Assembly (NCBI RefSeq): GCF_002095395.1
Contig: NZ_MJEI01000074.1
Span: 1-64,000, forward strand
Length of the DNA stretch: 64,000 bases
Direction of reading: 5' to 3'
Source: Williamsia sp. 1135
Lineage (GTDB): Bacteria > Actinomycetota > Actinomycetes > Mycobacteriales > Mycobacteriaceae
The notes under the pieces were generated by a model, which saw nothing but the letters and a program-made list of their open reading frames with translations, had not been told where the DNA came from and made no database searches. The stretch's first letter is position 1. The number at the start of each line of letters is the position of its first letter. Below are positions 47,695 to 62,551 of the stretch, in pieces. Made by a program: the position numbers and the translations under genes.

Positions 47695-48996
47695 ATGACA
47701 AGTAATGCCACCGCCGAAAGCCCCGACATCACCAGCGTCGAGGTTCCCACCCACTGGTACAACCTGGCCGCCGAACTGTCGGAGCCGATTCCTCCGCACC
47801 TGCATCCGGGGACGAAGGAGCCGGTCGGTCCCGAGGACCTCGCACTGCTGTTCCCCGCGGGGCTCATCGCACAGGAGGTGACGCCCGAGGTCTACATCGA
47901 GATCCCGGAGCCGGTGCGTGAGGTCTACAAGATGTGGCGACCTTCGCCGCTGATCAGGGCGCGCCGCTTCGAGCAGGCCCTGAACACCAAGGCGCGCATC
48001 TACGTGAAGTACGAGGGCGTGAGCCCGGTGGGCAGTCACAAGACCAATTCCGCGGTGGCACAGGCCTATTACAACTCGGTGGACGGCGTCAAGAAATTGA
48101 CGACAGAGACCGGGGCCGGCCAGTGGGGCAGTGCCCTGGCATTCGCAGGGGCGCTGTTCGACATCGACGTCGAGGTCTGGCAGGTGCGCGCGTCCTATGA
48201 GTCGAAGCCCTACCGGCGCTATCTCATCGAAACCTACGGCGGCACCATCCATTCGAGCCCGTCCGAGCTGACCGAAGCAGGTCGCGCGATCCTCGCCGCG
48301 ACCCCGGACACCACGGGCAGCCTGGGTATGGCCGTCAGCGAAGCCGTGGAGGCGGCTGTCAAGGACCCGCAGGCCCGGTACGCGTTGGGCAGCGTCCTCA
48401 ACCACGTCGTCTTGCATCAGAGCGTGATCGGACTCGAGGCCGTGGAGGAACTCGCGCTGGTGGAGTCCGGTGGTGCGGATCTGGTGGTCGGTTGCGCCGG
48501 AGGCGGATCCAACCTCGCCGGGCTGGCGTTCCCATTCCTCCGGGAGAAGCTGCACGGCCGGTCCGATCCGAAGGTGCTGGCCGCCGAACCGTCCGCGTGT
48601 CCGTCGATCACCAAGGGCGAGTACCGCTACGACCACGGCGACGTGGCCGGATTGACGCCGCTGCTGAAGATGCACACGCTGGGAATGGATTTCGTTCCGG
48701 ATCCGATCCATGCCGGCGGACTCCGCTACCACGGGATGTCGCCGGCGCTGAGCCACACCGTCGAACTGGGGCTGGTCGAGGGTGTCGCGATCGAACAGCG
48801 GGAAGCGTTTGCCGCCGGTGTGCTGTTCGCCAGGACCCAGGGCATCGTCCCGGCGCCCGAATCGACTCACGCGATTGCCGCAGCGGTTTCGCGGGTGCGT
48901 GATTCAGACGCGGAAGACGTTGTGGTGATCGGACTGAGCGGCCATGGTCAGCTCGATTTGCCGGCCTACTCCGAGTTCCTCGCCGGAAACGTCTGA
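47695..48996 (+). CDS. TrpB2-type tryptophan synthase beta-like protein
   Basis: A 433-residue PLP enzyme of the TrpB2 group, longer than standard TrpB and able to act without TrpA. PLP lysine sits in VGSHKTNSAVAQ near residue 118, the phosphate-binding loop is GCAGGGSNLAG near 268. Catalyses indole plus serine to tryptophan or, in some organisms, other beta-replacement reactions. Start ATG at 47695 chosen because the long upstream frame is antisense to the esterase. No trp genes are adjacent, which supports a side role. Confidence 0.9.
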   Translation: MTSNATAESPDITSVEVPTHWYNLAAELSEPIPPHLHPGTKEPVGPEDLALLFPAGLIAQEVTPEVYIEIPEPVREVYKMWRPSPLIRARRFEQALNTKARIYVKYEGVSPVGSHKTNSAVAQAYYNSVDGVKKLTTETGAGQWGSALAFAGALFDIDVEVWQVRASYESKPYRRYLIETYGGTIHSSPSELTEAGRAILAATPDTTGSLGMAVSEAVEAAVKDPQARYALGSVLNHVVLHQSVIGLEAVEELALVESGGADLVVGCAGGGSNLAGLAFPFLREKLHGRSDPKVLAAEPSACPSITKGEYRYDHGDVAGLTPLLKMHTLGMDFVPDPIHAGGLRYHGMSPALSHTVELGLVEGVAIEQREAFAAGVLFARTQGIVPAPESTHAIAAAVSRVRDSDAEDVVVIGLSGHGQLDLPAYSEFLAGNV

Positions 48997-49036
48997 CCAA
49001 GGCGACAGATTCGTCGAGGACGAACCCGGGGCATGA

Positions 49037-50066
49037 TCAGCGGGTGGGCACCACAACTGCCCGCCCGCGGATCGTGCCGGCGTGGAGGCGTTCGTATGCT
49101 TCCGGTGCAGAGTCCATGGCGAACTCCTCTACGGCGATCTCGATCGCGCCACGGCGGGCGAGTTCGACCACCTCGATCAGCTCCGATCGGGATCCCCAGT
49201 TGACCACCCGTACAGAGACATCGAACGGCACGGTCAGATATCCGACGGGGACGGCACCGGTGCTGACACCGACCATCACGATCTGTCCGGCGATGGCGAC
49301 CGTCGACTGCGCGAGCGCTGCCGTGGGTTCGGCGCCGACGAAGTCGAAGACGACATCCGCGCCGCGACCCCCGGTGAGTTCGCGAACCCGTTCGGCGGCA
49401 GCGGCGTCCGAGGCGAAGGCGTGATCTGCGCCGAGTTCGAGGGCATGGGAGATGCTTGCCGGGTTGATGTCCACGGCGATGATCGTCGCCTGCGTCAACG
49501 CTTTGAGCAGTTGCACGCCCACGTGGCCCAGGCCGCCGACGCCGATCACCAGCGCGGTGGTTCCCGGAGTGAGCACAGGAAGCGACGGTTTGATCGCGTG
49601 GTAGGGCGTCGGTGAGGGACACACTCGGAATGGGATCGAGGTCGCCGAGCGGCACCAGATGCCGGACGTCGTCGACGATCATGTACTCGGCCATCGTGCC
49701 CGGCCGATGGATGCCAGGGGCTGATATCCCGTCGACGCAGTTGTTTTCGCTACCCTGCGCGCACGAATGGCAGACGCCGCAGCCCCAGGGGCCGTAGACG
49801 AGAACCGAATCGCCGATCTCGACCCCGGTGGTGCCGGGTCCGAGTTCGGCGACCTCTCCCGCACCCTCGTGTCCGAGGGTCAGCGGGAGGGGTGCGAACA
49901 CATACTGATCCGCAGGGGTCGACATGATGAACTCGTCGGAATGACAGGCCCCGGAGGCGGTCATGCGCACCAGGACTTCGCCGGCACCCGGGGTCGGCCG
50001 GTCGATCTCCACGACCTCGGGGCGGGCCCCGAACTCGCGATACTGCAGGGCCCTCATCGTCGGCAT
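49037..50066 (-). pseudogene. Zinc-dependent alcohol dehydrogenase, frameshifted
   Basis: Two frames together spell one medium-chain alcohol dehydrogenase (about 345 residues). The first part from 50066 has the catalytic zinc ligands (GACHSDEFI, LGHEGAGEV) and structural CGVCHSCAQG cysteines, then SVSLTDA. The second part (49037 to about 49600) continues as TPYHAIKPSLP, VIGVGGLGHVG and RGAIEIAVEEF. Relative to the family join LTDAGLTPYH, about 11 bases seem to be missing near 49603-49608. It follows the Rieske oxygenase by one base, so it would have been the dehydrogenase for the oxygenase product. Unless the gap is an error, this step is now lost or done by another enzyme. Confidence 0.78.
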
Positions 50067-50067
50067 G

Positions 50068-51462
50068 TCAGTCGTCGACTTCCTCGCCGATCCACTTCGC
50101 GAGCAGATGGTGGATGTGGCGGATCTTGACTTCCTGGTACCGGGCCAGCGGAAGGGTCTTGGTCTGAGCGGACTTCAGGCCCTTGTGTACCTTCGGCATG
50201 TTGTATGCGTCCTGGTCGAACACACGGGCCGAACTGCCGAGAACCGTTGCCTCCAGCCAGGACTGCTCAGGATCGAGCCACTGCGTCTTGGCAGGCTTCG
50301 GCCGTTCGCCCTTGAAGGGGGCGAGCAGGTAGACGTCCATGATCGATGTCTCATGGTTGTCACCGTTGGGCCGGAACCGGTAGACGATGCGCTGGTAGGC
50401 GCCCCACGGATGAAAGTTCGGGAAGACGGTGTAATAGATGCTGTCGAGCGACTCCGCGTCAGACATCAAGTCTGCCTTGACGTCTCCGATGATGTCGCGC
50501 AGACCCTCGCGGGCCAGCATGCCGGACATCTCGCGGGCGGTGACACCCTCGGGCAGGGTCACCATCGGATCCTCGTCGATGCGGGCATCGACCATCGAGT
50601 CGAACATCTCCTGCTCGGAGGGTACGAACTTGATGTGCGGGCTGGGGACACCGTTGGCGGTGATCCCGCGGTTGAAGTTGCCCCAACTGTCGTACTGGCT
50701 GTTCGAGTCGCCGGTGCCGACCACGCGCTGCGGGTGGGTGGTGATCACGTGGAAGGCCTCGGAGAAGGCTTCCTGGGCGATCTTCCAGTTGGCCTGGATC
50801 ACCTGTGCCACGTGAGCCTGGATGTAGCGGTCTTCCAGTGGCCAGGCCTCGAAGTGCTTTCCGAGGTCGCCCAGGAAGCTGTCGAGTGATTCGGACGCGG
50901 GATCCATGTTGATGAAGACGAACCCGCCCCAGGTGTCGACCTTGACCTGCGGTAGATCCATCTTGCCCTTGTCGACCTGAGGAAAGTCCCATGCGCAGGT
51001 CATGGACTTCAGTGAGCCGTCGAAGTTCCAGGCGAATCCGTGGAAGGGGCAGCGGAGTTCGTTGCCCGCCGGTCCGTCCTCCTCGCGGAGGGTGCGGCCA
51101 CGGTGCAGGCAGGAGTTGTAGAAGGCGCGGATGCTCATGTCCTTGCCGCGGACGATGAGGATCGATTTCTCGCAGATCTCGTAGACCAGGGTGTCTCCGG
51201 GCTCGGGGATCTCTTCCTCTCGGCACGCCATCTGCCAGACCTTGTACCAGACCCGGTCGCGTTCGAGTTCGTGGTACTTGCGGCTGATATAGCGCGACAC
51301 CGGCACGAAGTTCTGGTCCTCGTACAGCTCGTACGACTCTTCCCGCAGGATGTCCGGAACCGGGTGGGTGTCGGTCTCCAGCAGGCGCTGGTAACCGGTG
51401 CCGTTCTCGATGAAGCCGCCGTCAGCTGCCGACTGCTGGGACGGGCGCGCTTCGGTGGTCAC
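50068..51462 (-). CDS. Rieske non-haem iron oxygenase, large subunit
   Basis: 464-residue ring-hydroxylating type oxygenase alpha subunit. The Rieske [2Fe-2S] ligands are Cys118-x-His120 and Cys138-x2-His141; the mononuclear iron site is Glu235/His238/His243 in EAFSEAFHVITTH. GTG start at 51462 has AAGGAGG upstream and overlaps the 101-residue gene (GTGA). No small subunit, ferredoxin or reductase is encoded nearby, so electrons come from elsewhere. Overall pattern resembles actinobacterial oxygenases acting on large hydrophobic or terpenoid/aromatic acids; the substrate is unknown. Confidence 0.9.
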   Translation of the reverse strand: MTTEARPSQQSAADGGFIENGTGYQRLLETDTHPVPDILREESYELYEDQNFVPVSRYISRKYHELERDRVWYKVWQMACREEEIPEPGDTLVYEICEKSILIVRGKDMSIRAFYNSCLHRGRTLREEDGPAGNELRCPFHGFAWNFDGSLKSMTCAWDFPQVDKGKMDLPQVKVDTWGGFVFINMDPASESLDSFLGDLGKHFEAWPLEDRYIQAHVAQVIQANWKIAQEAFSEAFHVITTHPQRVVGTGDSNSQYDSWGNFNRGITANGVPSPHIKFVPSEQEMFDSMVDARIDEDPMVTLPEGVTAREMSGMLAREGLRDIIGDVKADLMSDAESLDSIYYTVFPNFHPWGAYQRIVYRFRPNGDNHETSIMDVYLLAPFKGERPKPAKTQWLDPEQSWLEATVLGSSARVFDQDAYNMPKVHKGLKSAQTKTLPLARYQEVKIRHIHHLLAKWIGEEVDD

Positions 51463-51764
51463 AGTTTGCCTCCTTGTTCCAGGCTGACGGCGAGAGCATC
51501 TTGTGCCACCTTGTCGGCCTGCATCTTCTCGAGGAGCTTCGCGGCTCCCATGAATCGTCGGTTCTGGGTGATGGGTACGGGTTCTCGGGGGCCGAGACCC
51601 ACCCAGCGGGCCAATTCGGGATCCACTGACTTCACCTCACCGTGGAGGTATCGGCCTTCGGGGTCGAAGGTCCCTGTCTTACCGTCTTTGGTGGTCACGA
51701 GGACGTTGTAGTCATCGTCGAACTCGTAGATCGCACGGCTCATCGGATGCTTGATCTGTCGCAT
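51459..51764 (-). CDS. Small protein of unknown function linked to the Rieske oxygenase
   Basis: 101 residues, acidic then helical at the C-terminus. Notable: SRAIYEFDDDYNVLVTTKDG, GTFDPEGRYLHGEVKSVDPE and RRFMGAAKLLEKMQA. No metal motif or signal. It starts with AAAGGAG upstream and its last codons overlap the Rieske GTG, so translation is coupled. I do not recognise the family; a chaperone or accessory subunit of the oxygenase is possible. Confidence 0.7.
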   Translation of the reverse strand: MRQIKHPMSRAIYEFDDDYNVLVTTKDGKTGTFDPEGRYLHGEVKSVDPELARWVGLGPREPVPITQNRRFMGAAKLLEKMQADKVAQDALAVSLEQGGKL

Positions 51765-51875: not shown

Positions 51876-52622
51876 TCAGCGCAGGCGGGCGGCCCATTCG
51901 AGTGCACCGGCGACGAGTTGCCGGTACGTCGGATCGGAGAGCGTGGGTGCCTTGTCACCTGGCTGGAGGTAGGCCAGCCGGCTGCGTCCGGTCGTCTTCG
52001 TCCACCCGACCAGTTGTGATCCCGGTCGATGGTGCCAACCTGCACGTTCGTCGCGCCTTCCGGCCATCGCGAGGGCTGTGGACCAGTGGACCGCATCGCT
52101 CATCTCGGCATCGGTGCGCAGCAGGGGCGTGACGTCGTCCTCGAAAACCTCGCACAGATAGGTTTCGTCGACGAGCTCGAAGGTGGGCGGGAGTCCGGCG
52201 ACGATCGGATGGGTGGGATCGGCGACAGTGACCCGCTGTGCGACGGCGTGCCGGTAGCCGGAATCAGGGCAGCTCACGCCGCGTACGACACCGGGTCGGT
52301 ACAGGTAGCGGCCGCCGACGAACTCCGCCCAGTCGTCCCAGTTCGCCCAGGATGCGATGGCGTGGTGAAGGATCACATAGCCGTGGCCGGTCGCGGGCGC
52401 GGCGGCGACCGCTGCGCGCAGGGTCGCGGGGGGATCGGCAGGCTCCGGCAGGGTGCCAGGCATGTCGTAGTGCAGTGATACGTCGAACTTCTCCAGTTCG
52501 GCGGCGTCCGGCTCTGCGTCCGGGTGCTCGAACCAGGTGATCTCGCCGGGCAGCGAGCCCAGGAACTCCGTGAAGGCGTCGCGGTCGAACGAATGTCCGC
52601 CGGTGAAGGCCGCTACGCGCAT
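51876..52622 (-). CDS. ThuA-like (class-I glutamine-amidotransferase fold) protein
   Basis: 248 residues of the ThuA fold, beginning MRVAAFTGGHSFDRDAF. Typical features are HYDMPGTLPEP, GYVILHHAIASWANW near 80, SCPDSGYRH and the segment HPIVAGLPPTFELVDETYL characteristic of ThuA-like proteins. The ATG at 52622 has a GGAG eight bases upstream, and is favoured over a GTG six bases earlier. Fold members act on sugars or as carbohydrate/ketone hydrolases; function here unknown. A second ThuA protein lies at 57309. Confidence 0.85.
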   Translation of the reverse strand: MRVAAFTGGHSFDRDAFTEFLGSLPGEITWFEHPDAEPDAAELEKFDVSLHYDMPGTLPEPADPPATLRAAVAAAPATGHGYVILHHAIASWANWDDWAEFVGGRYLYRPGVVRGVSCPDSGYRHAVAQRVTVADPTHPIVAGLPPTFELVDETYLCEVFEDDVTPLLRTDAEMSDAVHWSTALAMAGRRDERAGWHHRPGSQLVGWTKTTGRSRLAYLQPGDKAPTLSDPTYRQLVAGALEWAARLR

Positions 52623-52661
52623 GGCCACACTCCGTTTCTGAGTAATTCAACTGGGGTTGCA

Positions 52662-52699: not shown

Positions 52700-53500
52700 T
52701 CAGCGACCTTCGATCATCTTGGAGCAGACATCCGTGGTGGCCGAGCGCAGACGCGGGACCGAAATGGTCGCGAGTGGACCGCCCTCGATACGCAGCGGCT
52801 GGATGGCGATCGTGGTGGCGATCATCGTCCGCACCCGCAGTGTCCGCGCCGCCTGTTGCGCGGCCGCCGAACGCTTGTTCGCGGGTGTCTCGTCGACGGG
52901 GAAGTAGTCGAAGGCTCGCCGGATGTGCCGGTCCTCGTACTCCTTGGTGAGAAGTCGGGTGCCCGGGGTCGCACCCCCGGCCATCTGTAAGAACAGCATG
53001 CGGGCGGCATTGGGGTGGGCGGCCGTCCAGTCCCAGACGGCCTCCACGACATCCTTGAACGACTGCGCATCTCCGGTGACATCATCCGGGCGAGCCGCCT
53101 GCGCGGCAGCGGAACTGGCGTCCATCGCATAGCCCAGCGCGCTCTCGAACAGGTCTTCCTTGCTGGAGAAGTGGTAGTAGACCGCGGTCGGAACCATTCC
53201 GGCTTCCTCGGCGATCTCCTGGATCGACGCCTCTGCGAAACCCTTCTTCGAGAAGACGCGGACGGCGGCCTTGACGATCAGGTGCCGTCGCGATGGTCGG
53301 TGAGCTGACCCCTTGACCTGCGCTGTCGGCTCGACGGGCGCGTCCTCGACCTCTGGTTCCCGGTTGGCCGGGATGACCACCGTGGCCGGGATGTCGTCGG
53401 CGGCGGGGAAAGAATCCCATCCCCACTGCTCGGCGTCGCCCCCCTCGGGGCCATCACCTGGTGCGTTGTTGTCATCTGGCTTGCTGTTTCGCCGTGGCAC
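52700..53500 (-). CDS. TetR-family regulator with long N-terminal extension
   Basis: 266 residues. GTG at 53500 with GGAGGA upstream. The first about 75 residues are acidic and low-complexity (Asp/Glu/Pro/Gly), then the HTH (VRVFSKKGFAEASIQEIAEEA, MVPTAVYYHFSSKEDLF) and a helical ligand domain. Typical TetR proteins start the HTH within the first 25 residues, so the extension is unusual. It shares AHRPSRR just before the HTH with the next TetR gene, 124 bases away and divergent; they appear to be paralogues. Confidence 0.87.
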   Translation of the reverse strand: MPRRNSKPDDNNAPGDGPEGGDAEQWGWDSFPAADDIPATVVIPANREPEVEDAPVEPTAQVKGSAHRPSRRHLIVKAAVRVFSKKGFAEASIQEIAEEAGMVPTAVYYHFSSKEDLFESALGYAMDASSAAAQAARPDDVTGDAQSFKDVVEAVWDWTAAHPNAARMLFLQMAGGATPGTRLLTKEYEDRHIRRAFDYFPVDETPANKRSAAAQQAARTLRVRTMIATTIAIQPLRIEGGPLATISVPRLRSATTDVCSKMIEGR

Positions 53501-53523
53501 AGCGGTCCTCCTCCACCTGCGGA

Positions 53524-53535
53524 TCACTGAAGTGA
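53524..53535. promoter_or_regulatory. Inverted repeat TCACT-GA-AGTGA between divergent TetR genes
   Basis: 5-bp half-sites with a 2-base centre, 24 bases upstream of the minus-strand TetR start. Candidate operator for one or both regulators. Confidence 0.4.
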
Positions 53536-53624: not shown

Positions 53625-54287
53625 ATGGCAGGCAAGGGAGTGACGTCAGGACAGGCCGGTGCCGGCCGGAAAGCCGCCGCGAGCACGCCTACGACGAAGG
53701 GTGCCAAGCGGGCAGCGCACCGGCCATCTCGCCGCGAGGTGGTGGTCGAGGCGGCCATGCACTTGTACTCGGTCCGCTCGATCGAGGACGTCACGGTGGC
53801 CGACATCGCTGCGGAGGCACACATGACCTCCGCCGCGGTGTATTACCACTACCCGTCGAAGGACGAGGTCCTGCTGGGCGGCCTGCGGTTGTACGCGACC
53901 GGACTGCTCGACGAGTTCCGTGCTCAGCTGCTGGCAAGTCCCGATGCCCCCCTCGGAGACATCATCGTGCGGCTTCTGGAGTGGACGGACCAGCACCGGC
54001 CCGCCTCGCTGGTGTTCTTCGTCCGGTCTCCGGGGTGGAGCCTGTCGATCGAGGCGCTGCGCCGTGAGGTGCGGCTGGAACTGCTCAACCTCTTCTCGAC
54101 CGAACTGCGGGTGCGCAACGGCATTTCTGTGAAGGCCAAGCAGGCCGCTGCGGCGACCGCATTGTCGAGTCTGCTCGAGGTATCGGTGTCGTCGTGGCTC
54201 ACCGAGGACGCCACGCTGGCCAATCTGGGGCGACGCCGATTCTCTGATGAGGTTCGTGAACTCGCGGCCGATATCGGCAGTGTGTGA
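53625..54287 (+). CDS. TetR-family regulator
   Basis: 220 residues. HTH at about 38-85 (MHLYSVRSIEDVTVADIAAEA, then MTSAAVYYHYPSKDEVLL), with an N-terminal Lys/Ala extension of about 30 residues that ends in AAHRPSRR, the same motif as the divergent TetR. No clear ribosome binding site precedes the ATG at 53625, though the direct repeat does. Likely regulates the 49-62 kb catabolic island. Confidence 0.87.
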   Translation: MAGKGVTSGQAGAGRKAAASTPTTKGAKRAAHRPSRREVVVEAAMHLYSVRSIEDVTVADIAAEAHMTSAAVYYHYPSKDEVLLGGLRLYATGLLDEFRAQLLASPDAPLGDIIVRLLEWTDQHRPASLVFFVRSPGWSLSIEALRREVRLELLNLFSTELRVRNGISVKAKQAAAATALSSLLEVSVSSWLTEDATLANLGRRRFSDEVRELAADIGSV

Positions 54288-54395: not shown

Positions 54396-55103
54396 GTGCC
54401 CAACTCGACCCGTGCCCGGTCCATCGACCTCGACAACCCCTTCGCGCCACTGACCGGGCTGTGTGAGTTGGTGCTCGTCCGGCATGGCGAGCAGCAGCTC
54501 AGCAGAGAGCTCAGCGCCGCCGAGACCGTTGACCCGCCGCTGTCCGAGCTGGGCGAGAACCAGGTGCGGGCTGTGGCCCAGCGGCTGGCAGAGCGGCACA
54601 TCGACGCGGTGTACAGCTCGCCGCTGAGCCGCGCGCTGCGCACCGGGACAGCCATCGCGGATGAACACGGACTCATTCCTGTTGTTCGTGAGGAGTTGAC
54701 GGAATACGAACCGTGGCAGAACTTCCCGGCCGACCAGTCGCCGTTCGAGGTACTGCCGCACGAAGAGATCTCGAAGATCTTCTCCGAGCACATCCGCACC
54801 CGGCGGTATGACGCGTTCCCGTACGCGGAGGATCCGATCGGATTCCGGACCAGGGTGCTCGGTGAGATCGGAGCGATCGTCGAGCAGCATCCGGGGGAGC
54901 GTGTGGTCGTGACCTGCCACAGCGGAGTCATCAACGCCGTTCTCGCCGACGCTCTCGGGAGCAGCTTCGACATGCCGGTGCGGGTTCACCACACGTCCGT
55001 CAGCGTCGTCCGGGGAGCCGACACCCGGCGGGCAGTGCAGTCGATCAACGACTTCTCGCACGTCCTGGAATTCCAGACGCATGTCGGAGCAATGAACCTC
55101 TAG
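54396..55103 (+). CDS. Histidine-phosphatase superfamily (phosphoglycerate-mutase-like) protein
   Basis: 235 residues. Catalytic LVRHGEQQLS near residue 28 with the phosphohistidine, SSPLSRALRTG near 74 for the second Arg, and CHSGVINAV with the closing His near 172. Members are phosphatases or mutases of small phosphoesters. The location, 24 bases before an SDR and in the same direction as lpd and ThuA, puts it in the operon of the island. A phosphatase here makes sense if the pathway uses phosphorylated intermediates (inference). Confidence 0.87.
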   Translation: MPNSTRARSIDLDNPFAPLTGLCELVLVRHGEQQLSRELSAAETVDPPLSELGENQVRAVAQRLAERHIDAVYSSPLSRALRTGTAIADEHGLIPVVREELTEYEPWQNFPADQSPFEVLPHEEISKIFSEHIRTRRYDAFPYAEDPIGFRTRVLGEIGAIVEQHPGERVVVTCHSGVINAVLADALGSSFDMPVRVHHTSVSVVRGADTRRAVQSINDFSHVLEFQTHVGAMNL

Positions 55104-55127: not shown

Positions 55128-55889
55128 ATGGATCTCAATCTCAAAGGAAAACGCGCCCTCATCAGTGGTGCGAGCCGCGGCATCGGGTTGGCGATCGCCC
55201 GGACCCTACTTGCCGAGGGCGCCTCGGTGGGCATCTGTGCCCGCGGAGAAGAACATCTCGCCGAGGTCGCCGGCGAACTGTCGGAGCAGGGAACGGTTTT
55301 CCACAAGGCAGTCGATGTAGGCGACGCCGACTCGGTGAAGTCCTTCGTCGATGAGGCGGCCGAAGCTCTCGGCGGAATCGACATCGTGGTGGTCAACGCC
55401 TCGGCGGCCACCGGCAAGGGACATCAGGCCTGGGTCAACAGCTTCAACGTCGACCTGATGAGCCTGGTCAACTTCATCGAATCCGCCACCCCGCATCTCG
55501 AGGTGAGCGAGTCGGCCTCCGTGGTCACCATCAGCACCACCTCCGCGCTCGAGGCCGGCCCCATCAGCACCGCCAACAGCTACGGAGCACTGAAGGCAGC
55601 CGTGCTGCAGCATTCCTCTGCGCAGGCGCGGGCGTTGGGTCCCAAGGGAATTCGCGTAAACGCCATCTCGCCCGGACCGATATTCTTCGAAGGCGGCGCC
55701 TGGGACACCATCCAGACCGCTCGCCCCGCCCTGTACGAGGCCGCACTCGCCTCCGCCTCGCTCGGCAAGCTCGGCGGCGCCGAAGATGTCGCCAATGCCG
55801 TTGTCTTCCTGTCCTCCCCGGCTGCCGGACACATCACCGGGACCAACCTGGTGGTCGACGGCGGATTCACCAACCGCTTCGACTTCTGA
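55128..55889 (+). CDS. Short-chain dehydrogenase/reductase
   Basis: 253 residues. TGxxxGxG as SGASRGIGLAIA, with VNASAATG instead of NNAG; catalytic serine near VTISTTSALE, Tyr in NSYGALKAAV. AAAGGAG lies before the ATG. Second gene of the phosphatase operon; LpdA begins nine bases after its stop. Probably oxidises or reduces a hydroxyl in the pathway. Confidence 0.88.
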   Translation: MDLNLKGKRALISGASRGIGLAIARTLLAEGASVGICARGEEHLAEVAGELSEQGTVFHKAVDVGDADSVKSFVDEAAEALGGIDIVVVNASAATGKGHQAWVNSFNVDLMSLVNFIESATPHLEVSESASVVTISTTSALEAGPISTANSYGALKAAVLQHSSAQARALGPKGIRVNAISPGPIFFEGGAWDTIQTARPALYEAALASASLGKLGGAEDVANAVVFLSSPAAGHITGTNLVVDGGFTNRFDF

Positions 55890-55898
55890 GTCTCTGAC

Positions 55899-57290
55899 AT
55901 GGCAAGCGAGAAGTCGGCCGATCTGCTGATCCTCGGAGGCGGGTCAGGCGGGTATGCGTGTGCTCTGCGGGCTGCGCAGCTCGGAATGTCGGTGATCCTG
56001 ATCGAAGCCGACAAGCTGGGCGGCACGTGTCTACACAACGGGTGCATTCCGACCAAGGCGCTGCTCCACGCGGCCGAGGTCGCCGACTCTGTTCGCGAGG
56101 CGCCGGGTTTCGGGATCGAGGCGACGCTCGACGGCATCGACATGAGTGCGGTGAACACCTACAAGGACGAGGTCATCGCGGGCCTGTATCGCGGTCTGCA
56201 AGGCCTCGTGGCCTCTCGCGAGATCGATCTCGTCAGTGGGCACGGTCGAGTGGTGGGCGATCGCACCGTCGAGGTCGAGTTGGCTGACGGCGGCACCGCG
56301 CGCTACCGCGGTGAAGCACTCGTGCTCGCCACCGGTTCACAGCCGAAGTCGTTGCCAGGTCTGACAGTTGGCGGCGCGGTCATGACCAGCGACCGCGCGC
56401 TGGAGCTCGACAGCGTTCCCGAACGTGTCGTGGTGCTCGGCGGCGGCGTGATCGGCTGCGAGTTCGCCAGCGTCTGGTCGTCGCTCGGCGCCCACGTGAC
56501 AATCGTGGAGGCAGCGCCGAATCTGCTTCCGACAGAGGATCCCTGGACGTCCAAGCAGGTCGAGCGCGCGTTCCGTAAGCGGGGGCTGGTCCTGCGGACG
56601 AAAACCGCCTTCAGCTCGGTGACCGAAGCCGATGGTGGCGTCGACGTCGAGCTGGCCGACGGATCGCATATCGAGGCCGACATCATGCTCGTCGCGGTGG
56701 GCCGCGGCCCGCGCACGGCAGACATGGGTTTCGCCGAAGCAGGTGTCGATCTCGAACGTGGCTTCGTGGTGACCGACGAATGGTTGCAGACGTCTGTGCC
56801 CGGCGTCTTCGCCGTGGGCGACATCGTCGCCGGACCGCAATTGGCGCACCGCGGCTTCGCCCAGGGCATCCTGGTGGCCGAGCAACTGGCCGGATTCGAC
56901 TGTGTTCCCATCGTGGACAAGGGTATTCCTCGTGTGACGTACTCCAATCCCGAGGTCGCGTCGGTCGGTCTCACCGAAGCCGAGGCCGCGCAGGAGTATG
57001 GCGACGTCGCGACAGTGGTCTATGACCTCGGAGGCAACGGCAAGAGCCGCATCCTGCGTACCTCCGGCGGGGTCAAGCTCGTATCGGCGGGCCCAGACGG
57101 CCCGGTTGTGGGAATCCACCTGGTTGGTGCCCGGGTCGGTGAGCTCATCGGTGAAGCCCAGCTCATCTACAACTGGGAGGCAACCGCAGGTGATGTCGCA
57201 CAACATATCCACGCGCATCCGACTCAGGCCGAGGCCTTGGGCGAAGCGCATCTGGCGCTGGCGGGCAAAGCACTCCACGCGCACGGCTAG
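55899..57290 (+). CDS. lpdA: Dihydrolipoyl dehydrogenase
   Basis: A 463-residue FAD enzyme that regenerates lipoyl groups. FAD motif LGGGSGGYACALRAAQLG near residue 14, redox pair Cys44/Cys49 in GGTCLHNGC, NAD motif GGGVIGCEFAS near 186 and C-terminal HPTQAEA with His440 and Glu445. It is a paralogue of the main complex enzyme here, since no other 2-oxoacid dehydrogenase genes are present. It might serve as reductase for the Rieske oxygenase or for another dithiol, or be part of a split complex elsewhere. Confidence 0.88.
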   Translation: MASEKSADLLILGGGSGGYACALRAAQLGMSVILIEADKLGGTCLHNGCIPTKALLHAAEVADSVREAPGFGIEATLDGIDMSAVNTYKDEVIAGLYRGLQGLVASREIDLVSGHGRVVGDRTVEVELADGGTARYRGEALVLATGSQPKSLPGLTVGGAVMTSDRALELDSVPERVVVLGGGVIGCEFASVWSSLGAHVTIVEAAPNLLPTEDPWTSKQVERAFRKRGLVLRTKTAFSSVTEADGGVDVELADGSHIEADIMLVAVGRGPRTADMGFAEAGVDLERGFVVTDEWLQTSVPGVFAVGDIVAGPQLAHRGFAQGILVAEQLAGFDCVPIVDKGIPRVTYSNPEVASVGLTEAEAAQEYGDVATVVYDLGGNGKSRILRTSGGVKLVSAGPDGPVVGIHLVGARVGELIGEAQLIYNWEATAGDVAQHIHAHPTQAEALGEAHLALAGKALHAHG

Positions 57291-57308: not shown

Positions 57309-58097
57309 ATGGCAGGACCAGCGGGCCGGCTCGATGCAGTCGTCGTATGCGGTGGACAGTGGCATGACTTCGATTACGCCCGGCTGCAATTGCTTACGGC
57401 ACTATCCGGATACGAGCACGTACGCACCAGGGTCTTCGAGGACTACAACTGTCTCGAAGCCCTGGCGTCCGCAGACCTGCTGATCACCTACACCTGCAAT
57501 CGGGTGCCGGACGAGACGCAGCAAGAAGCGTTGATCGGGTTCGTCTCCCGGGGCGGCCGCTGGCTGGCTCTGCACGGGACGAACTCAGCGATCGACCGGA
57601 CACCGCCGGGTTCGGCAAGCAAGTATGTGACCCCGCGGACGATGGGGGAGCTGCCGCAGGTGCTCGGGAGCCAATTTCTGGGACATCCGCCGATTGCGCC
57701 GTATCTGGTCGAGGTGACCGACCCCGAGCATCCGTTCGTCTCCGGCGTCGAACCGTTCGAGGTGACCGACGAGCTCTACGTCAGTGAGCTCCATCCTCCG
57801 ATCCAGGTCCTGGCTCATACCCGATTCGTCGGCGAATCAAGAGGATTCGAAGAAGGACACACGACCGTGGACAAACCGCGCCCGGTGTTGTACTTGAAGG
57901 ATCACGGAGCTGGGACCGTCTGTTACTTCACGCTGGGCCACTGTCGTGGCCGGTTTGATGTCCAGGATCTGGGTATCGACGATCTCGGCCGGGTCGATCT
58001 GGGGAGCTGGGCCGTACCGGAGTTCCATACGATCCTGGGACGGTGTCTGTCGTGGGCCGTCACCGGTGTGGTGACGGCGCCACTCCAGATCGGCTGA
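57309..58097 (+). CDS. Second ThuA-like protein
   Basis: 262 residues, ThuA fold: AVVVCGGQWHDFDYARLQLL, DLLITYTCNRVPDETQQEALIGF, GGRWLALHGTNSAID near 85, and HPFVSGVEPFEVTDELYVSE in the substrate-side. GAAG precedes the ATG. It is 18 bases past lpdA and is probably co-transcribed with it. It is divergent in sequence from the ThuA protein at 51876. The recurrent pairing of two ThuA folds with oxygenase and PEP-type genes is worth noting. Confidence 0.85.
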   Translation: MAGPAGRLDAVVVCGGQWHDFDYARLQLLTALSGYEHVRTRVFEDYNCLEALASADLLITYTCNRVPDETQQEALIGFVSRGGRWLALHGTNSAIDRTPPGSASKYVTPRTMGELPQVLGSQFLGHPPIAPYLVEVTDPEHPFVSGVEPFEVTDELYVSELHPPIQVLAHTRFVGESRGFEEGHTTVDKPRPVLYLKDHGAGTVCYFTLGHCRGRFDVQDLGIDDLGRVDLGSWAVPEFHTILGRCLSWAVTGVVTAPLQIG

Positions 58098-58100
58098 AGC

Positions 58101-58877
58101 TCAGTACATCGCCGTTCCACCGTCGACGCTGAGGATGGACCCGGTGATGCCGGCGCCCGCGTCTGAGGCGAGGAGCATCGCCACAGCCGCGACTTCTTCG
58201 ATGGTGTTGGGGCGCTTGATCGCCGACTCCTCGGCGAACAGCGCGACCATCTCGTCGAACGACATGCCCATGGCCTTGGCCGTGTCGGGTCCATTGTTCT
58301 TGATGATGTCGGTGATCACCAGACCTGGGCAGATTGAGTTGACGGTGATGCCCTCGGTGCCGACCTCGCGGGCGATCGACTTGGTCATGCCGTTGATCGC
58401 GTGCTTGGCGGCCACGTAGGCGGTGAACACGGGCTTGCCGTGCTTGCCTTCGACCGAGGAGATGTTGATGATGCGGCCGTACTTGTTCGGGAGCATGTGC
58501 TGCAACGCGCGGCGGGTGGCCCAGAAGTTCGAGTTCAGGTTCCAGTTCATCACCAGGGTCCATTCCTCGTCACTGAGGTTGGCGGTGGGCTGTAGGTCCT
58601 TGGCGCCGCCGGCGTTGTTCACCAGGACGTCGATACGGCCGAAGGTTGCGACGGTCTGCTCGATGAAGTCCTCCACATCGGCCTGCACCGTCACGTCACC
58701 GGGGAAGAAGGCAGCGCGTTCACCGACGCCGAACTCGGCCAGAGCTTTATCGCCCTTCTCCTTCGAGCGGCCGTTGAGCGATACCTTCGCACCCTCTGCC
58801 AGAGCCGCTTCGGCGATACCGCGGCCAATACCTTGCGTGCCGCCGGTGATGGCAACAACCTTGTCTTGCAGTTTCAT
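58101..58877 (-). CDS. Short-chain dehydrogenase/reductase (classical)
   Basis: 258 residues. TGGTQGIGRGIA motif, NNAGGAKD, Ser in INISSVEGK, catalytic YVAAK and the PGLVITD tail. Close to 3-oxoacyl-ACP reductase-like or hydroxy-dehydrogenases. ATG at 58877 follows AGGAG. Divergent from the PEP-utilising gene; two palindromes lie between. Confidence 0.9.
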   Translation of the reverse strand: MKLQDKVVAITGGTQGIGRGIAEAALAEGAKVSLNGRSKEKGDKALAEFGVGERAAFFPGDVTVQADVEDFIEQTVATFGRIDVLVNNAGGAKDLQPTANLSDEEWTLVMNWNLNSNFWATRRALQHMLPNKYGRIINISSVEGKHGKPVFTAYVAAKHAINGMTKSIAREVGTEGITVNSICPGLVITDIIKNNGPDTAKAMGMSFDEMVALFAEESAIKRPNTIEEVAAVAMLLASDAGAGITGSILSVDGGTAMY

Positions 58878-59043: not shown

Positions 59044-60768
59044 ATGGCCGAACAGCGTTGGTTGGTCGACACCGACCCGAGCACACGCCTCCCCGTCTAC
59101 ACGCGGCTCAACGCGAGCGATGTGCTGTCGGACCCGATCACGCCGCTCGGTGCGGACCTCGGCTGGATTCAGAACATCCTGCCCGGGTGGAACTTCGGAT
59201 ATGCGAGCCTCGGTAGCTACTCCCTCGCGGAGAAGCCCGATGTCGCGGCGTCGTCCGGCATCTTCTACGGACACCTCTACATCAACCTGTCGATGTCACG
59301 TCTCGTCGGCATCCGCGGTGGAATCCCCGTCGAGCTCGTCGACCAGCTCTGGTACGGCGGAGACCCGAACATCCCGGCCTATGTGGGCCACCCCGATGAC
59401 GAGAACGCAGAGGCCACCGCGCGGCTGGCAGCCCGTAACGCCTGGGCGTTGTCGACCGAGACCTTCCCCGAGCTGGAGGAGGATCGGACTCTGGCCGACA
59501 AGCTGCGCACCGAGCGTCCCGACCTCACCTCGTTGACCCCGGCTGCGCTCGTCGCGCGGGCTCGTTCGGTGATGCCGCTGGAGCGCGTCGCCTGGCGTGG
59601 CGAAGTCGTTGCCACCAACTGTGCAGCAGTCGGCCCCGCCGTCCTGGGACAGCTCCTCGGTGCCGAGCACCAGGACCTGATCGTCACCTTGGTCGGCGCC
59701 GCCGGCGACGTGGACTCGGCGCTGCCATCGTACGCGCTGTGGGAGCTCGGTCGCATGGTGCGGGCTGACGAGAAGCTGATGGCCGCGTTCGCCGCCGGCG
59801 TCCAGGGAGTCGGAGCCCGTGTCGCCGGAATCGACCCGAAGTTCGACTCGACCTTCGAGCAGTTCATCCTCGACTTCGGATATCGCGGACCCAACGAGTG
59901 GGACCTCGGTTCCGTCTCGTGGGAGACCCAGCCCGAACTCGTACTCGGACTGATCGACCGGCTCCGGTTGCAGGACGATTCGGCGTCACCGTCCGCGCGC
60001 CTCGGCGACCATGCCACAGACACCGACGACGCACTCGGCAAGGCTGTTGCGATTGTCGGCGATGACGCCGAGGGTCAGGCGACCCTCACCGCAGCGCTCG
60101 CTTCGGCCCGTCGCTTCGCTGCCTGGCGTGAGCGCGCGAAGACCAACTGCATCAAGGTCATTCACGAGGCGCGGGCGCCGCTCGTCGAACTCGGCCGCCG
60201 ATTGCATGCCGATGGTCACCTCGAGGCCGCCGATCACGTGTTCATGGCCGTCGACGACGAGCTCGACGCTCTGGCGAGCGCACCTGAGTCGATGAAGGTC
60301 ACGTTGGCCGAGCGTCACAAGGAGTGGGAGGGGCTGTTCGGACTCGAACTGCCCACCTTCCTCGATGCCCGCGAACCGTTTCCGGCGCTGTCGACTCTGG
60401 GTCGGAAGGGTCAGTCGGCGGTCGACGCCGTCAAGGTCGGCGACGTGTTGCAGGGGTCGGGTGCTTCGCCCGGTATCACTCGCGGTCGCACTCGGGTGAT
60501 CACCTCGATGGCGGCGCTCGATGAGTTCGAGGTCGGCGAGATCCTCGTCGCCCCGCAGACCGACCCGTCCTGGACCCCCTTGTTCATGGTGTCCGGTGGA
60601 GCGATCACCGACGTCGGAGCGATGGGTTCGCACGCGATGATCGTCAGCCGCGAGCTCGGGATAGCCTGTGCAGCCGGTGTGCAAGCCGCCACCCGTCGCA
60701 TCCCGAACGGCGCGCTCGTCGAGGTCGACGGCTCCAAGGGCACGGTCACCATCCTGGAACTGCCTTGA
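59044..60768 (+). CDS. PEP-utilising mobile (swivelling) domain protein without ATP-grasp partner
   Basis: 574 residues. The C-terminal 90 residues are the phosphohistidine swivelling domain (ASPGITRGRTRVI, then FMVSGGAITDVGAMGSHAMI with the catalytic His), found in PEP synthases, rifampin phosphotransferase and phenylphosphate/4-methylbenzyl-phosphate synthases. The rest is a large helical N-terminal part; no ATP-grasp domain is present in this gene or visible in the window. In split phosphotransferases the ATP-grasp subunit is a separate protein. So it may phosphorylate an alcohol or phenol substrate with a partner encoded elsewhere (inference). Confidence 0.8.
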   Translation: MAEQRWLVDTDPSTRLPVYTRLNASDVLSDPITPLGADLGWIQNILPGWNFGYASLGSYSLAEKPDVAASSGIFYGHLYINLSMSRLVGIRGGIPVELVDQLWYGGDPNIPAYVGHPDDENAEATARLAARNAWALSTETFPELEEDRTLADKLRTERPDLTSLTPAALVARARSVMPLERVAWRGEVVATNCAAVGPAVLGQLLGAEHQDLIVTLVGAAGDVDSALPSYALWELGRMVRADEKLMAAFAAGVQGVGARVAGIDPKFDSTFEQFILDFGYRGPNEWDLGSVSWETQPELVLGLIDRLRLQDDSASPSARLGDHATDTDDALGKAVAIVGDDAEGQATLTAALASARRFAAWRERAKTNCIKVIHEARAPLVELGRRLHADGHLEAADHVFMAVDDELDALASAPESMKVTLAERHKEWEGLFGLELPTFLDAREPFPALSTLGRKGQSAVDAVKVGDVLQGSGASPGITRGRTRVITSMAALDEFEVGEILVAPQTDPSWTPLFMVSGGAITDVGAMGSHAMIVSRELGIACAAGVQAATRRIPNGALVEVDGSKGTVTILELP

Positions 60769-61781
60769 GCAGCGGCGTGATCACCACCACCAGGGCTGTC
60801 TATCTGCGCGAGCGTCCGCCGGACGGCGAGCCTCGGCCCGAGCACTTCGAGGTCCGGGACGCGCCGCTCCCCGAGCGCACCGACGGTCAGGTGCTGGTCC
60901 GCAACTTGTTCATGAGTGTGGACCCGTCGATGCGGGGCCGTCTCGCGACGTCGGAATTGCACTACACCACCAACTTCCAGGTGGACGAACCACTGGACGG
61001 CTCGGCGCTGGGGGTTGTGGTCGAAGGGAACCGTGAGGTTCCGGTCGGTTCGTACGTGCGGCATCGGCTCGGCTGGCGCGACCACGCGGTGGTCGACACC
61101 ACCGCCGCCGCCGTGATCGATCCCCGGGGCATCGACCTGCACCACTGGCTCGGAGTGCTGGGGCAAACGGGGTTCACTGCCTACAGCGGCTTGGTCCGTG
61201 CCGGTGAGATCCGCAGCGGAGACGACGTCTTCGTCTCCGCGGCCGCCGGTGCGGTCGGTAGCACCGCGGGTCAGTTCGCCAAGCTGCTCGGCGCTTCGAA
61301 GGTCATCGGTAGTGCCGGTGGTCCCGAGAAGGCCGCTCTGCTGACAGATCGTCTCGGGTTCGACGCTGGTCTCGACTACCGCGCCAACCCGATCGGTGCG
61401 GCGCTCCGCGAAGCTGCTCCCGATGGCATCGATCTCTACTTCGACAATGTGGGTGGTGATCACCTGGTCGCTGCGCTGTCGTCGCTGCGACAACGGGGTC
61501 GAGTTGCGTTGTGCGGCATGATCTCCAACGGCGGTCCGGACAGCCCGCCGATCGATCATCTGATGAATTGCATCCTCAAACGGATCACGATCAGGGGCTT
61601 CATCGTCCGTGACCATGAAGATCTCCGGCCCGAGTTCGAGGATCGGGTGGCCGGGTGGCTTGCCGCGGGCGAACTCGTCGCGGAGTCGACAATCTACGAC
61701 GGACTCGACAACGCGGTCGATGCGTTTCTGTCCATGCTCGGCGGCGGCAACGTCGGGAAGATGCTGGTGGGGTTGGCGTGA
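60765..61781 (+). CDS. MDR-superfamily NADP-dependent oxidoreductase
   Basis: 338 residues of the zinc-free MDR group (PGR/CurA-like). TTG start at 60765 overlaps the upstream stop (TTGA); GTG at 60777 is an alternative. Landmarks: RGRLATSELHYT near 50, GQTGFTAYSGLVRAGEIRSGDD, the nucleotide loop SAAAGAVGSTAGQFAKLLG and YFDNVGGDHL. Reduces an enone or similar alkenal. Coupled to the PEP-type and hydratase genes. Confidence 0.88.
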   Translation: MSSGVITTTRAVYLRERPPDGEPRPEHFEVRDAPLPERTDGQVLVRNLFMSVDPSMRGRLATSELHYTTNFQVDEPLDGSALGVVVEGNREVPVGSYVRHRLGWRDHAVVDTTAAAVIDPRGIDLHHWLGVLGQTGFTAYSGLVRAGEIRSGDDVFVSAAAGAVGSTAGQFAKLLGASKVIGSAGGPEKAALLTDRLGFDAGLDYRANPIGAALREAAPDGIDLYFDNVGGDHLVAALSSLRQRGRVALCGMISNGGPDSPPIDHLMNCILKRITIRGFIVRDHEDLRPEFEDRVAGWLAAGELVAESTIYDGLDNAVDAFLSMLGGGNVGKMLVGLA

Positions 61782-62551
61782 CGACGATTGAAACGACCGC
61801 GTGGACGCTGGTTGTCGAGCAGCGGGTGGCTGTCGCGACCTTCAGTCATCCGCCGCGCAATCTCATGACGTTCGCGGACATGACCGAGCTCGAACAGATC
61901 GTCAGGAAGGTCGCTGACGATGAGAGCATCTCGGTGCTGGTGATCGCCAGCGACATCCCCGACTATTTCGTCGCGCATGGTGATCTCGAGGACTTGCTGC
62001 GGCTGGGTCGTGGTGAGCCGTACGCCGGCGACGCCGGTTCGTGGCCCCGCACGCTGGGCCTGTTCGGGACCATGCCGCAGATTGTCGTCGCCGCGATCAA
62101 CGGTCAGGCGTGGGGCGGTGGACTCGAATTGTCGCTGGCCTGCACTCTGCGGATAGCCGGTCCGGCCGCAAGCCTCGGGCTGTGCGAGGTGGGCCTCGGG
62201 TTGATTCCGGGCGGCGGTGGGACACAGCGCCTGCCACGATTGATCGGAGCGGGGCGAGCAGCGGAGATGGTGCTCACCTCACGCCCGATCGACGCCGACG
62301 AGGCATTGCGTATCGGCCTTGTTCAGGCGGTGTTGCCGGATGCCCCGTTCATCGATGCCGTCCTGGACTGGGTTGCGGCCCTCGCAGCCCAACCGCCGCA
62401 GGCGCTCCGTGCCGCGAAGAAGTCGTTGGCCGGCGCCGAGTACCTGCCGTTGGAGCAAGGTCTCGCACTCGAGGGCGAATTGGTGGGCCCGCTACTCGCG
62501 GACCCCGAGGCCGTCTCTCTTCAGGAGCAGGAGTTGGCCCGGCACCGCTGA
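61778..62551 (+). CDS. Enoyl-CoA hydratase/isomerase family protein
   Basis: 257 residues, GTG at 61778 overlaps the MDR stop (GTGA). The crotonase oxyanion loop is seen as AINGQAWGGGLELSLACTLR, followed by GLGLIPGGGGTQRLPRLIG. The usual two Glu residues are reduced to one in this stretch. Likely hydrates or isomerises a CoA ester of the pathway. Last gene of the plus-strand set; the EthD gene is convergent. Confidence 0.88.
   Translation: MTTIETTAWTLVVEQRVAVATFSHPPRNLMTFADMTELEQIVRKVADDESISVLVIASDIPDYFVAHGDLEDLLRLGRGEPYAGDAGSWPRTLGLFGTMPQIVVAAINGQAWGGGLELSLACTLRIAGPAASLGLCEVGLGLIPGGGGTQRLPRLIGAGRAAEMVLTSRPIDADEALRIGLVQAVLPDAPFIDAVLDWVAALAAQPPQALRAAKKSLAGAEYLPLEQGLALEGELVGPLLADPEAVSLQEQELARHR

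What the first reader, a model, noticed from the sequence alone, without database searches (positions are those of the whole stretch)
59044..62551. PEP-utilising mobile-domain protein in an oxidative operon, without an ATP-grasp partner
The 574-residue protein keeps the catalytic swivelling-His motif (GSHAMI) but not the ATP-grasp domain needed to charge it. It is coupled by overlaps to an MDR reductase and an enoyl-CoA hydratase. In the 49-62 kb island there are also a histidine phosphatase, a Rieske oxygenase and two ThuA proteins. This would fit a pathway that activates an alcohol or phenol by phosphorylation, comparable in principle to phenylphosphate or 4-methylbenzyl-phosphate synthases, but with a gene set I do not recognise as described.
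Basis: partly seen in the sequence, partly recalled or inferred. Interest (0 to 1): 0.75.

Follow-up and report, generated by a model that had tools for sequence, protein, structure and literature searches.

The report
PEP-charged small-molecule kinase, predicted
The gene makes the substrate-binding half of a small-molecule kinase whose usual ATP-using partner is missing, and a degenerate relative of pyruvate phosphate dikinase encoded in the same conserved catabolic gene cluster looks set to power it with phosphoenolpyruvate instead.

Summary
The 574-aa protein (59044-60768) is a rifampin-phosphotransferase/HpeH-type acceptor subunit: substrate domain plus swivel His530, catalytic Arg362-Glu363 kept, no ATP-grasp domain. 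Its neighbours are conserved in 16 of 17 fetched loci. The window holds part of a larger catabolic cluster (~49 kb in a relative). The rest carries a second acceptor (579 aa) and a ~849-aa pyruvate phosphate dikinase (PPDK) homologue that, in 9 of 9 copies aligned, has lost ATP-site residues but keeps the PEP site and swivel His. Of 397 genomes, 6 have this degenerate PPDK and all 6 also have a full-length acceptor: 7-20 kb apart in five, on separate draft contigs in the window's genome. Six genomes with the acceptor have no ATP-grasp (PPDK_N) domain at all. Some other acceptors stand beside the complementary PPDK remnant, an ATP-half VadK-like protein, with the same small partner. I propose a PEP-powered relay: PEP, degenerate PPDK, His530, hydroxyl of an unknown substrate. 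The relay is inferred; no phosphoryl transfer was shown.

The parts
59044..60768 (+). Acceptor protein (substrate domain + swivel domain, His530; Arg362-Glu363), 574 aa, no ATP-grasp
60765..61781 (+). MDR-family enone reductase (curcumin reductase/LTB4-dehydrogenase like); start TTG 60765 or GTG 60777
   Evidence: beside the acceptor in 16 of 17 loci
61778..62551 (+). Enoyl-CoA hydratase, likely start GTG 61778; accessory (2 of 17 loci)
58101..58877 (-). SDR dehydrogenase
57309..58097 (+). ThuA-domain protein
55899..57290 (+). Dihydrolipoyl dehydrogenase, possible E3 of the E1/E2 genes elsewhere in the cluster
   Evidence: TIGR01350 452.8 bits, cut-off 408.8
55128..55889 (+). SDR dehydrogenase
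54396..55103 (+). Histidine-phosphatase-family protein
   Evidence: His_Phos_1 2e-36
53625..54287 (+). TetR-family regulator (start uncertain)
52700..53527 (-). TetR-family regulator
51876..52628 (-). ThuA-domain protein
51459..51764 (-). 101-aa protein overlapping the Rieske gene, conserved beside it; function unassigned
50068..51462 (-). Rieske oxygenase alpha subunit
48966..50066 (-). MDR-family dehydrogenase, edge of the conserved block

Best explanation
The 574-aa protein is the acceptor component of a multi-component small-molecule phosphotransferase in a large catabolic cluster. Shown by sequence: it has a rifampin-phosphotransferase/HpeH-type substrate domain and swivel domain, with the acceptor-side catalytic residues. 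Shown by sequence: the same cluster in relatives encodes a PPDK homologue with a damaged ATP site and an intact PEP site and swivel His, whose gene overlaps that of a conserved ~208-aa protein. Inferred: PEP phosphorylates the PPDK-like protein's His; the phosphoryl group passes to His530 of the acceptor, either His to His or by the acceptor's swivel domain docking on the PEP domain in trans, perhaps helped by the 208-aa protein; His530 then phosphorylates a hydroxyl of the substrate. Inferred: the phosphate marks or traps the compound while the Rieske oxygenase, dehydrogenases, CoA ligases and beta-oxidation enzymes act, and a histidine-phosphatase-family enzyme removes it. The substrate is unknown; a cyclic, hydroxylated, terpenoid-like compound is my guess.
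For: Fold and residues: the AlphaFold model's six best PDB matches are all rifampin phosphotransferase entries, over 462-512 columns (TM by query 0.29-0.50, model pLDDT only 58.5). Arg362 and Glu363 align with Arg666/Glu667 of RPH-Lm, whose replacement by Ala abolished rifampin inactivation (PMC4844700 passages); with His530 they are invariant in 22 of 22 proteins aligned, the window's included, and kept in 4 more. Partner: degenerate PPDK 849 aa, E 3.5e-156 to PPDK; no PPDK_N match at E<=1 in the 2 copies scanned at that limit; the K22, Q335 and R337 positions replaced, PEP-site residues and swivel His kept, in 9 of 9 copies aligned. Linkage: 6 of 397 genomes have it and 6 of those 6 have a full-length acceptor, against 2 of the other 391 (Fisher 5e-12, relatedness and choice of cut-offs not corrected); gaps of 7-20 kb in five of the six. 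No PPDK_N in six distinct genomes with the acceptor. Complementary case: in G029, G276 and G272 an acceptor gene overlaps a VadK-like PPDK gene that keeps the ATP half and lacks the PEP half, itself overlapping a 208-aa-like gene. The 208-aa family lies next to the degenerate PPDK in 6 and within 5 kb of PPDK_N in 46 of 81 places. VadK of Mycobacterium tuberculosis autophosphorylates on His with ATP (PMC13400623 passages).
Against: No biochemical data. The degenerate PPDK is not in the acceptor's operon: gaps are 7-20 kb in the five genomes above, 11-13 kb in Leaf247 and Gordonia, and 33 kb in Williamsia G005 (15 kb to its second acceptor); in this draft genome it is on another contig. Two of 8 full-length acceptors in 397 genomes have no degenerate PPDK: G227 has an ATP-half donor about 9 kb away, G289 only weak PPDK_N matches about 245 kb away and a swivel-only fragment beside the acceptor. 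G204 has a canonical PPDK gene next to the degenerate one. The tree does not firmly group the acceptors that lie near the degenerate PPDK (support 31/30). 29 of 81 places of the 208-aa family have no PPDK-derived neighbour in the listed rows (list truncated). Loss of ATP binding is inferred from alignment; R92 and E323 are kept in 5 of 9 copies. An enzyme I is also present and could be the donor. VadK was reported as a regulator, not as part of a small-molecule kinase.
Confidence: 0.5

Rival explanations
1. The acceptor runs by exchange or in reverse: His530 takes phosphate from another phosphorylated metabolite, or from the substrate, and the degenerate PPDK hands it to pyruvate to recover PEP.
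For: HpeH alone moves phosphate from 4-phosphoacetophenone to acetovanillone (PMC12167813 abstract). PEP-site residues are intact, and that half-reaction is reversible (PPDK chemistry, recalled).
Against: Ordinary alcohol phosphates lie too low in transfer potential to make PEP (recalled). Related operons pair the acceptor with an ATP-using donor, which points to the kinase direction.
Confidence: 0.15
2. The acceptor is charged by enzyme I (or HPr) of the sugar PTS.
For: Five ATP-grasp-free genomes hold exactly two PEP-binding (PF02896) proteins each, an enzyme-I-sized one and the PPDK-sized one. In the window's genome I read the enzyme-I-sized gene as enzyme I, beside what read as fructose PTS genes (names recalled). 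B. subtilis enzyme I phosphorylates rifampicin in vitro, though not detectably in vivo (PMC13099321 abstract).
Against: Enzyme I is not in the cluster, whereas the degenerate PPDK is.
Confidence: 0.12
3. No small molecule is phosphorylated: the acceptor and degenerate PPDK form a regulatory phosphocarrier system, as proposed for VadK, or the His is structural.
For: VadK is reported to autophosphorylate and to tune a metabolic cycle by protein interaction (PMC13400623, abstract and passages).
Against: The acceptor keeps residues that in RPH act on the phosphate of the small molecule, and matches RPH over its substrate domain.
Confidence: 0.13
4. An ATP-grasp protein encoded elsewhere charges it in trans, as HpeI does for HpeH.
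For: All nine Williamsia genomes searched have at least one PPDK_N protein.
Against: In 6 of the 8 other Williamsia the only PPDK_N protein is one fused with its own acceptor part; six genomes with conserved acceptors have none at all. An ATP-grasp of a family unlike PPDK_N is not excluded.
Confidence: 0.06

Closest known systems
HpeHI / CreHI / PpsAB two-component phenolic dikinases
   Same: Acceptor subunit of the same design (substrate domain + C-terminal swivel His), in a catabolic cluster with a phosphatase-family gene, CoA ligase and, in the wider cluster, a biotin carboxylase
   Different: No stand-alone ATP-grasp subunit; a degenerate PPDK with PEP domain instead, plus a 208-aa protein. 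HpeD is NagD-like (PMC9618137 passages), not a histidine phosphatase. Sequence identity to HpeH itself was not measured
Rifampin phosphotransferase (RPH)
   Same: Model matches it over most of the length; Arg-Glu pair and swivel His
   Different: RPH carries its own ATP-grasp domain and is one chain
VadK (ATP-half PPDK derivative)
   Same: A PPDK-derived protein with a swivel His beside a small partner protein; in three genomes a VadK-like gene overlaps an acceptor gene
   Different: VadK keeps the ATP site and lacks the PEP domain; here the reverse
Enzyme I of the PTS
   Same: PEP-binding barrel plus swivel His, predicted to take phosphate from PEP
   Different: The degenerate PPDK has a PPDK-like N-terminal half, not enzyme I's N-terminal domain, and its proposed acceptor is not HPr

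Membership tests
Two-component small-molecule dikinase (HpeHI type) | Acceptor subunit with substrate domain and swivel His | tested here: met
   (model of low confidence)
Two-component small-molecule dikinase (HpeHI type) | Stand-alone ATP-grasp subunit encoded with it | tested here: not met
   No PPDK_N on the window's contig; none in six genomes that keep the acceptor
Two-component small-molecule dikinase (HpeHI type) | ATP-dependent phosphorylation of a phenolic or alcohol | not testable with these tools
   needs an assay
Rifampin phosphotransferase | ATP-grasp, substrate and swivel domains in one chain | tested here: not met
   only the last two are present
PPDK (for the 849-aa partner) | PEP/pyruvate site and swivel His | tested here: met
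   9 of 9 copies aligned
PPDK (for the 849-aa partner) | ATP-site residues K22, Q335, R337 | tested here: not met
   replaced in 9 of 9 copies aligned; PPDK residue numbers recalled, mapped
PTS enzyme I (for the 849-aa partner) | Enzyme I N-terminal HPr-binding domain | tested here: not met
   Pfam finds only PEP-utilizers and PEP-utilizers_C in the 2 copies scanned; full-length alignment is to PPDK
VadK (for the 849-aa partner) | ATP half kept, PEP domain absent | tested here: not met
   the reverse

The most novel reading that the evidence does not exclude
PPDK has broken down in two complementary ways into donors for the same kind of small-molecule kinase: an ATP-half (VadK-like) and a PEP-half. 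The PEP-half version makes a PEP-driven small-molecule kinase relay, outside the sugar PTS, that starts or supports catabolism of a natural product. VadK-like proteins at large would then be charging components of such kinases.
Probability: 0.4. Interest if true: 0.8.

Novelty: new variant of a known kind. Interest (0 to 1): 0.62.

Why it matters
The HpeH/RPH-type small-molecule kinases that I found in print use an ATP-grasp domain, in the same chain or as a partner. A version charged by PEP would tie activation of the growth substrate to glycolytic state, would be a PEP-driven phosphorelay outside sugar transport, and would give a testable role to a family of PPDK remnants whose substrates are unclear.

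Tried and rejected
Rejected: a conserved ATP-grasp (PPDK_N) partner in trans. Rejected: that the C83 PEP-utilizer gene of the genome is another acceptor; I read it as enzyme I from its sequence and neighbours (not scanned with Pfam). Dropped: my first idea that the ~850-aa protein is an epimerase fusion of the PRK05865 kind; one search showed a PEP-binding domain and a PPDK alignment. Notebook entry 2 still carries that wrong label, and entry 4 gives 11-21 kb 'in all six' where the coordinates give gaps of 7.0, 10.6, 18.4, 18.9 and 19.3 kb in five.

The structure model is weak (pLDDT 58.5, residues 1-128 below 50), so I use it only for the overall match to RPH. I did not fold the 849-aa protein: too few sequences eligible for the tool were at hand for an alignment. 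The tree of acceptors did not resolve whether donor type follows clade.

Searches for the pathway's substrate led nowhere (listings only). Literature searches for a PEP-driven or ATP-grasp-free small-molecule kinase of this kind found none (listings only, apart from the papers cited); most subscription journals are not in that library. Papers seen: PMC12167813 abstract, passages and Discussion section; PMC4844700 passages; PMC13400623 abstract and passages; PMC13099321 abstract; PMC9618137 passages. Plasmid records: 5 of 222 matching records hold an acceptor relative over at least 80% of the length, at 35-38% identity; for the 849-aa protein the 20 rows listed of 196 are all below 40% identity.

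Counting notes: G066 and G203 are the same record (contig of 635472 bases, R. kyotonense KB10), as are L024, G008 and G071; I count them once where I say distinct. G192 is 91% complete by the tool's estimate. The cut-offs for degenerate PPDK (>=59% identity) and full-length acceptor (E<=1e-100) were set after seeing the gap in the listings; the listing is truncated at its weak end. In one search I entered the PPDK_N places that lay on the same contig as a 208-aa match, from the listed part plus one, so its 46 is a lower bound. Gene calls come from my own simple caller; some starts and fusions there are wrong.
Full report
THE OBSERVATION. [quoted passage not shown] At the widest, residues 207-572 align with the C-terminal parts of PEP-synthase-like models, and residues 266-572 with RedH and rifampin phosphotransferase (RPH) models; residues 269-571 align with RPH in the PDB (E 2e-21). 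[quoted passage not shown] An AlphaFold model from 17 sequences is weak (pLDDT 58.5), yet its six best PDB matches are all RPH entries over 462-512 columns (TM by query 0.29-0.50). [quoted passage not shown] Arg362-Glu363 align with the RPH-Lm residues Arg666-Glu667 that are critical for the transfer to rifampin (PMC4844700, passages). They and His530 are invariant in 22 of 22 proteins aligned, the window's included, and kept in four more distant proteins.

WHERE IT IS. The genome is a Williamsia (nearest locus 99% identical, Williamsia soli). Seventeen loci were fetched, from Williamsia, Rhodococcus/Rhodococcoides, Gordonia, Dietzia, Nocardia and one record titled Kitasatospora. In 16 of 17 the genes Rieske, ThuA, TetR, TetR, histidine phosphatase, SDR, lipoamide dehydrogenase, ThuA, SDR, acceptor and MDR reductase stand together. 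The miss is the 36%-identical Nocardia protein. The enoyl-CoA hydratase is in 2 of 17.

THE LARGER CLUSTER. In Rhodococcus sp. Leaf247 (G061, about 49 kb) and Williamsia G005 (longer, with an insertion) the block is part of a larger cluster, also found in Gordonia G068 and in part in Dietzia G070. In the window's draft genome the other part is on contig C28. Its genes include two CoA ligases, four acyl-CoA dehydrogenase genes, a thiolase with a ChsH2-like OB protein, 2-oxoacid dehydrogenase E1 and E2 genes, aldehyde dehydrogenase, two luciferase-like monooxygenases, a pyruvate-carboxylase-like biotin enzyme, an ABC transporter (not in Gordonia or Dietzia), a second acceptor protein of 579 aa (42-44% identical to the window's) and an 849-aa protein whose gene overlaps that of a 208-aa protein. 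A further histidine phosphatase lies there, and beside it another by similarity.

NO ATP-GRASP PARTNER. PPDK_N was sought in whole genomes. Own genome: five matches at three places, none on the contigs of the cluster. Eight other Williamsia: 8 of 8 have a match, in six of them only in one fused PEP-synthase-like protein. Eleven genomes reached through loci: 5 of 11 have no match (G061-G064, G066), though each of these holds four PEP-utilizer proteins. Nine more genomes or records: 7 of 9 match; G203 (the same record as G066) and G192 do not. That gives six distinct genomes with an acceptor and no PPDK_N. An ATP-grasp of another family is not excluded.

THE PPDK-DERIVED PARTNER. The 849-aa protein aligns nearly end to end with PPDK (E 3.5e-156). 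Its PEP-binding domain scores 227.7 bits, and PPDK_N is not found at E<=1 in the two copies scanned at that limit (Leaf247 and G204). In 9 of 9 copies aligned, the positions of K22, Q335 and R337 are replaced. R92 and E323 are kept in five and lost in four. The PEP-site motifs with R561, R617, E745, N768-D769 and C831, and the swivel His, are kept in 9 of 9 (roles and numbers of PPDK residues recalled). A canonical PPDK from G204 and two VadK-like proteins keep the ATP motifs in the same alignment. PF02896 was sought in 13 genomes: 13 of 13 have an enzyme-I-sized protein and a second in a frame of 849 or more residues, and G000 and G001 also a PEP synthase.

CO-OCCURRENCE. Both proteins were searched in the same 397 genomes of the order. 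The degenerate PPDK (59-88% identity; other PPDKs reach 46% at most in the rows listed) is in 6. Full-length acceptors (E<=1e-100) are in 8; 35 genomes have a weaker match at E<=1e-30 or better. All 6 with the degenerate PPDK have an acceptor (Fisher 5e-12; relatedness and choice of cut-offs not corrected). They fall in four families. The gap between acceptor and degenerate PPDK is 7.0 (G203), 10.6 (G258), 18.4 (G204), 18.9 (G192) and 19.3 kb (G074); in the window's genome the window acceptor is on another contig, and the second acceptor gene is 13.5 kb from the degenerate PPDK. In the four distant clusters (G074, G192, G204, G258) all four share the 208-aa protein, two acyl-CoA dehydrogenases, thiolase, OB protein, CoA ligase ACS2, SDR55, a ThuA protein and a TetR; three of four share MDR60, a histidine phosphatase and a Rieske protein at 42% or more; two of four the E1/E2 genes.

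THE MIRROR IMAGE. Some acceptors without the degenerate PPDK have the complementary remnant. On Rhodococcus pyridinivorans plasmid pA and in G227 a VadK-like protein (PPDK_N and swivel, no PEP domain) lies 7-9 kb away; PPDK_N lies about 25 and 35 kb from the two acceptors on the Rhodococcus sp. ZPP plasmid. In G029, G276 and G272 the order is 208-aa-like protein, VadK-like protein, acceptor, with overlapping ends. These VadK-like proteins keep the ATP motifs and have no PEP barrel. Against this pattern: G289 has only weak PPDK_N matches about 245 kb away and a 189-aa swivel-only protein beside the acceptor; the Nocardia acceptor has none in the 20 kb read, and a PPDK_N gene about 40 kb away; in Dietzia no degenerate PPDK was found on the 40 kb read. 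The 208-aa family (no Pfam match in three members) is found in 77 of 397 genomes at 81 places: 6 next to the degenerate PPDK and 46 within 5 kb of PPDK_N; for 29 no such neighbour is in the listed rows, and the list is truncated. The published VadK of Mycobacterium tuberculosis has an operonic partner, Rv1126c, that improves its solubility (PMC13400623, passages); whether that protein belongs to the 208-aa family was not tested.

MECHANISM. The two remnants share the small partner and the acceptor but keep opposite halves of PPDK. The simplest reading is that both are donors: one charged by ATP, as shown for VadK (passages), and one by PEP, as enzyme I is. The acceptor then phosphorylates a hydroxyl. 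In the Hpe pathway phosphorylation makes the substrate acceptable to a biotin carboxylase and is undone by a phosphatase (PMC9618137, passages); the cluster here has a biotin carboxylase beside the second acceptor and histidine-phosphatase genes, which fits but proves nothing. Direction, relay order and substrate are inferred or unknown.

KNOWN OR NEW. The protein is of the HpeH/RPH acceptor design, but it fails the defining ATP-grasp feature of the two-component dikinases, so I do not file it as one. A PEP-half PPDK partner is not described in the papers I found. I rate it a new variant of a known kind.

Noticed in passing
L115:2043-5763, L116:2973-6690, L117:3334-7087: Three-gene overlapping operons: 208-aa-like protein, VadK-like PPDK remnant, RPH-type acceptor. 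They suggest that VadK-like proteins charge a small-molecule kinase.
   Followed up: partly
L080:6253-9636: Pyruvate-carboxylase-like 1127-aa biotin enzyme beside the second acceptor gene, conserved in the cluster.
   Followed up: no
G000:C40:26655-28861: PEP synthase of the window's genome falls in two reading frames (379 and 441 aa) where G001 has one 779-aa frame; a real break or a draft error.
   Followed up: no
L024: Record titled Kitasatospora arboriphila has the same coordinates as G008, a genome of the window's genus; the title looks wrong.
   Followed up: no
L118:4628-7156: 842-aa protein of Williamsia G005 with an acceptor-type C-terminal part (Arg-Glu and His kept), about 10 kb from a 208-aa-like gene and a VadK-like gene.
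   Followed up: partly
window 45143-46690: 515-aa ORF with no Pfam match, kept next to the cluster in Williamsia G005 (73% identity).
   Followed up: no
L107:3782-6523: In G204 a canonical PPDK gene stands next to the 208-aa protein and the degenerate PPDK.
   Followed up: no
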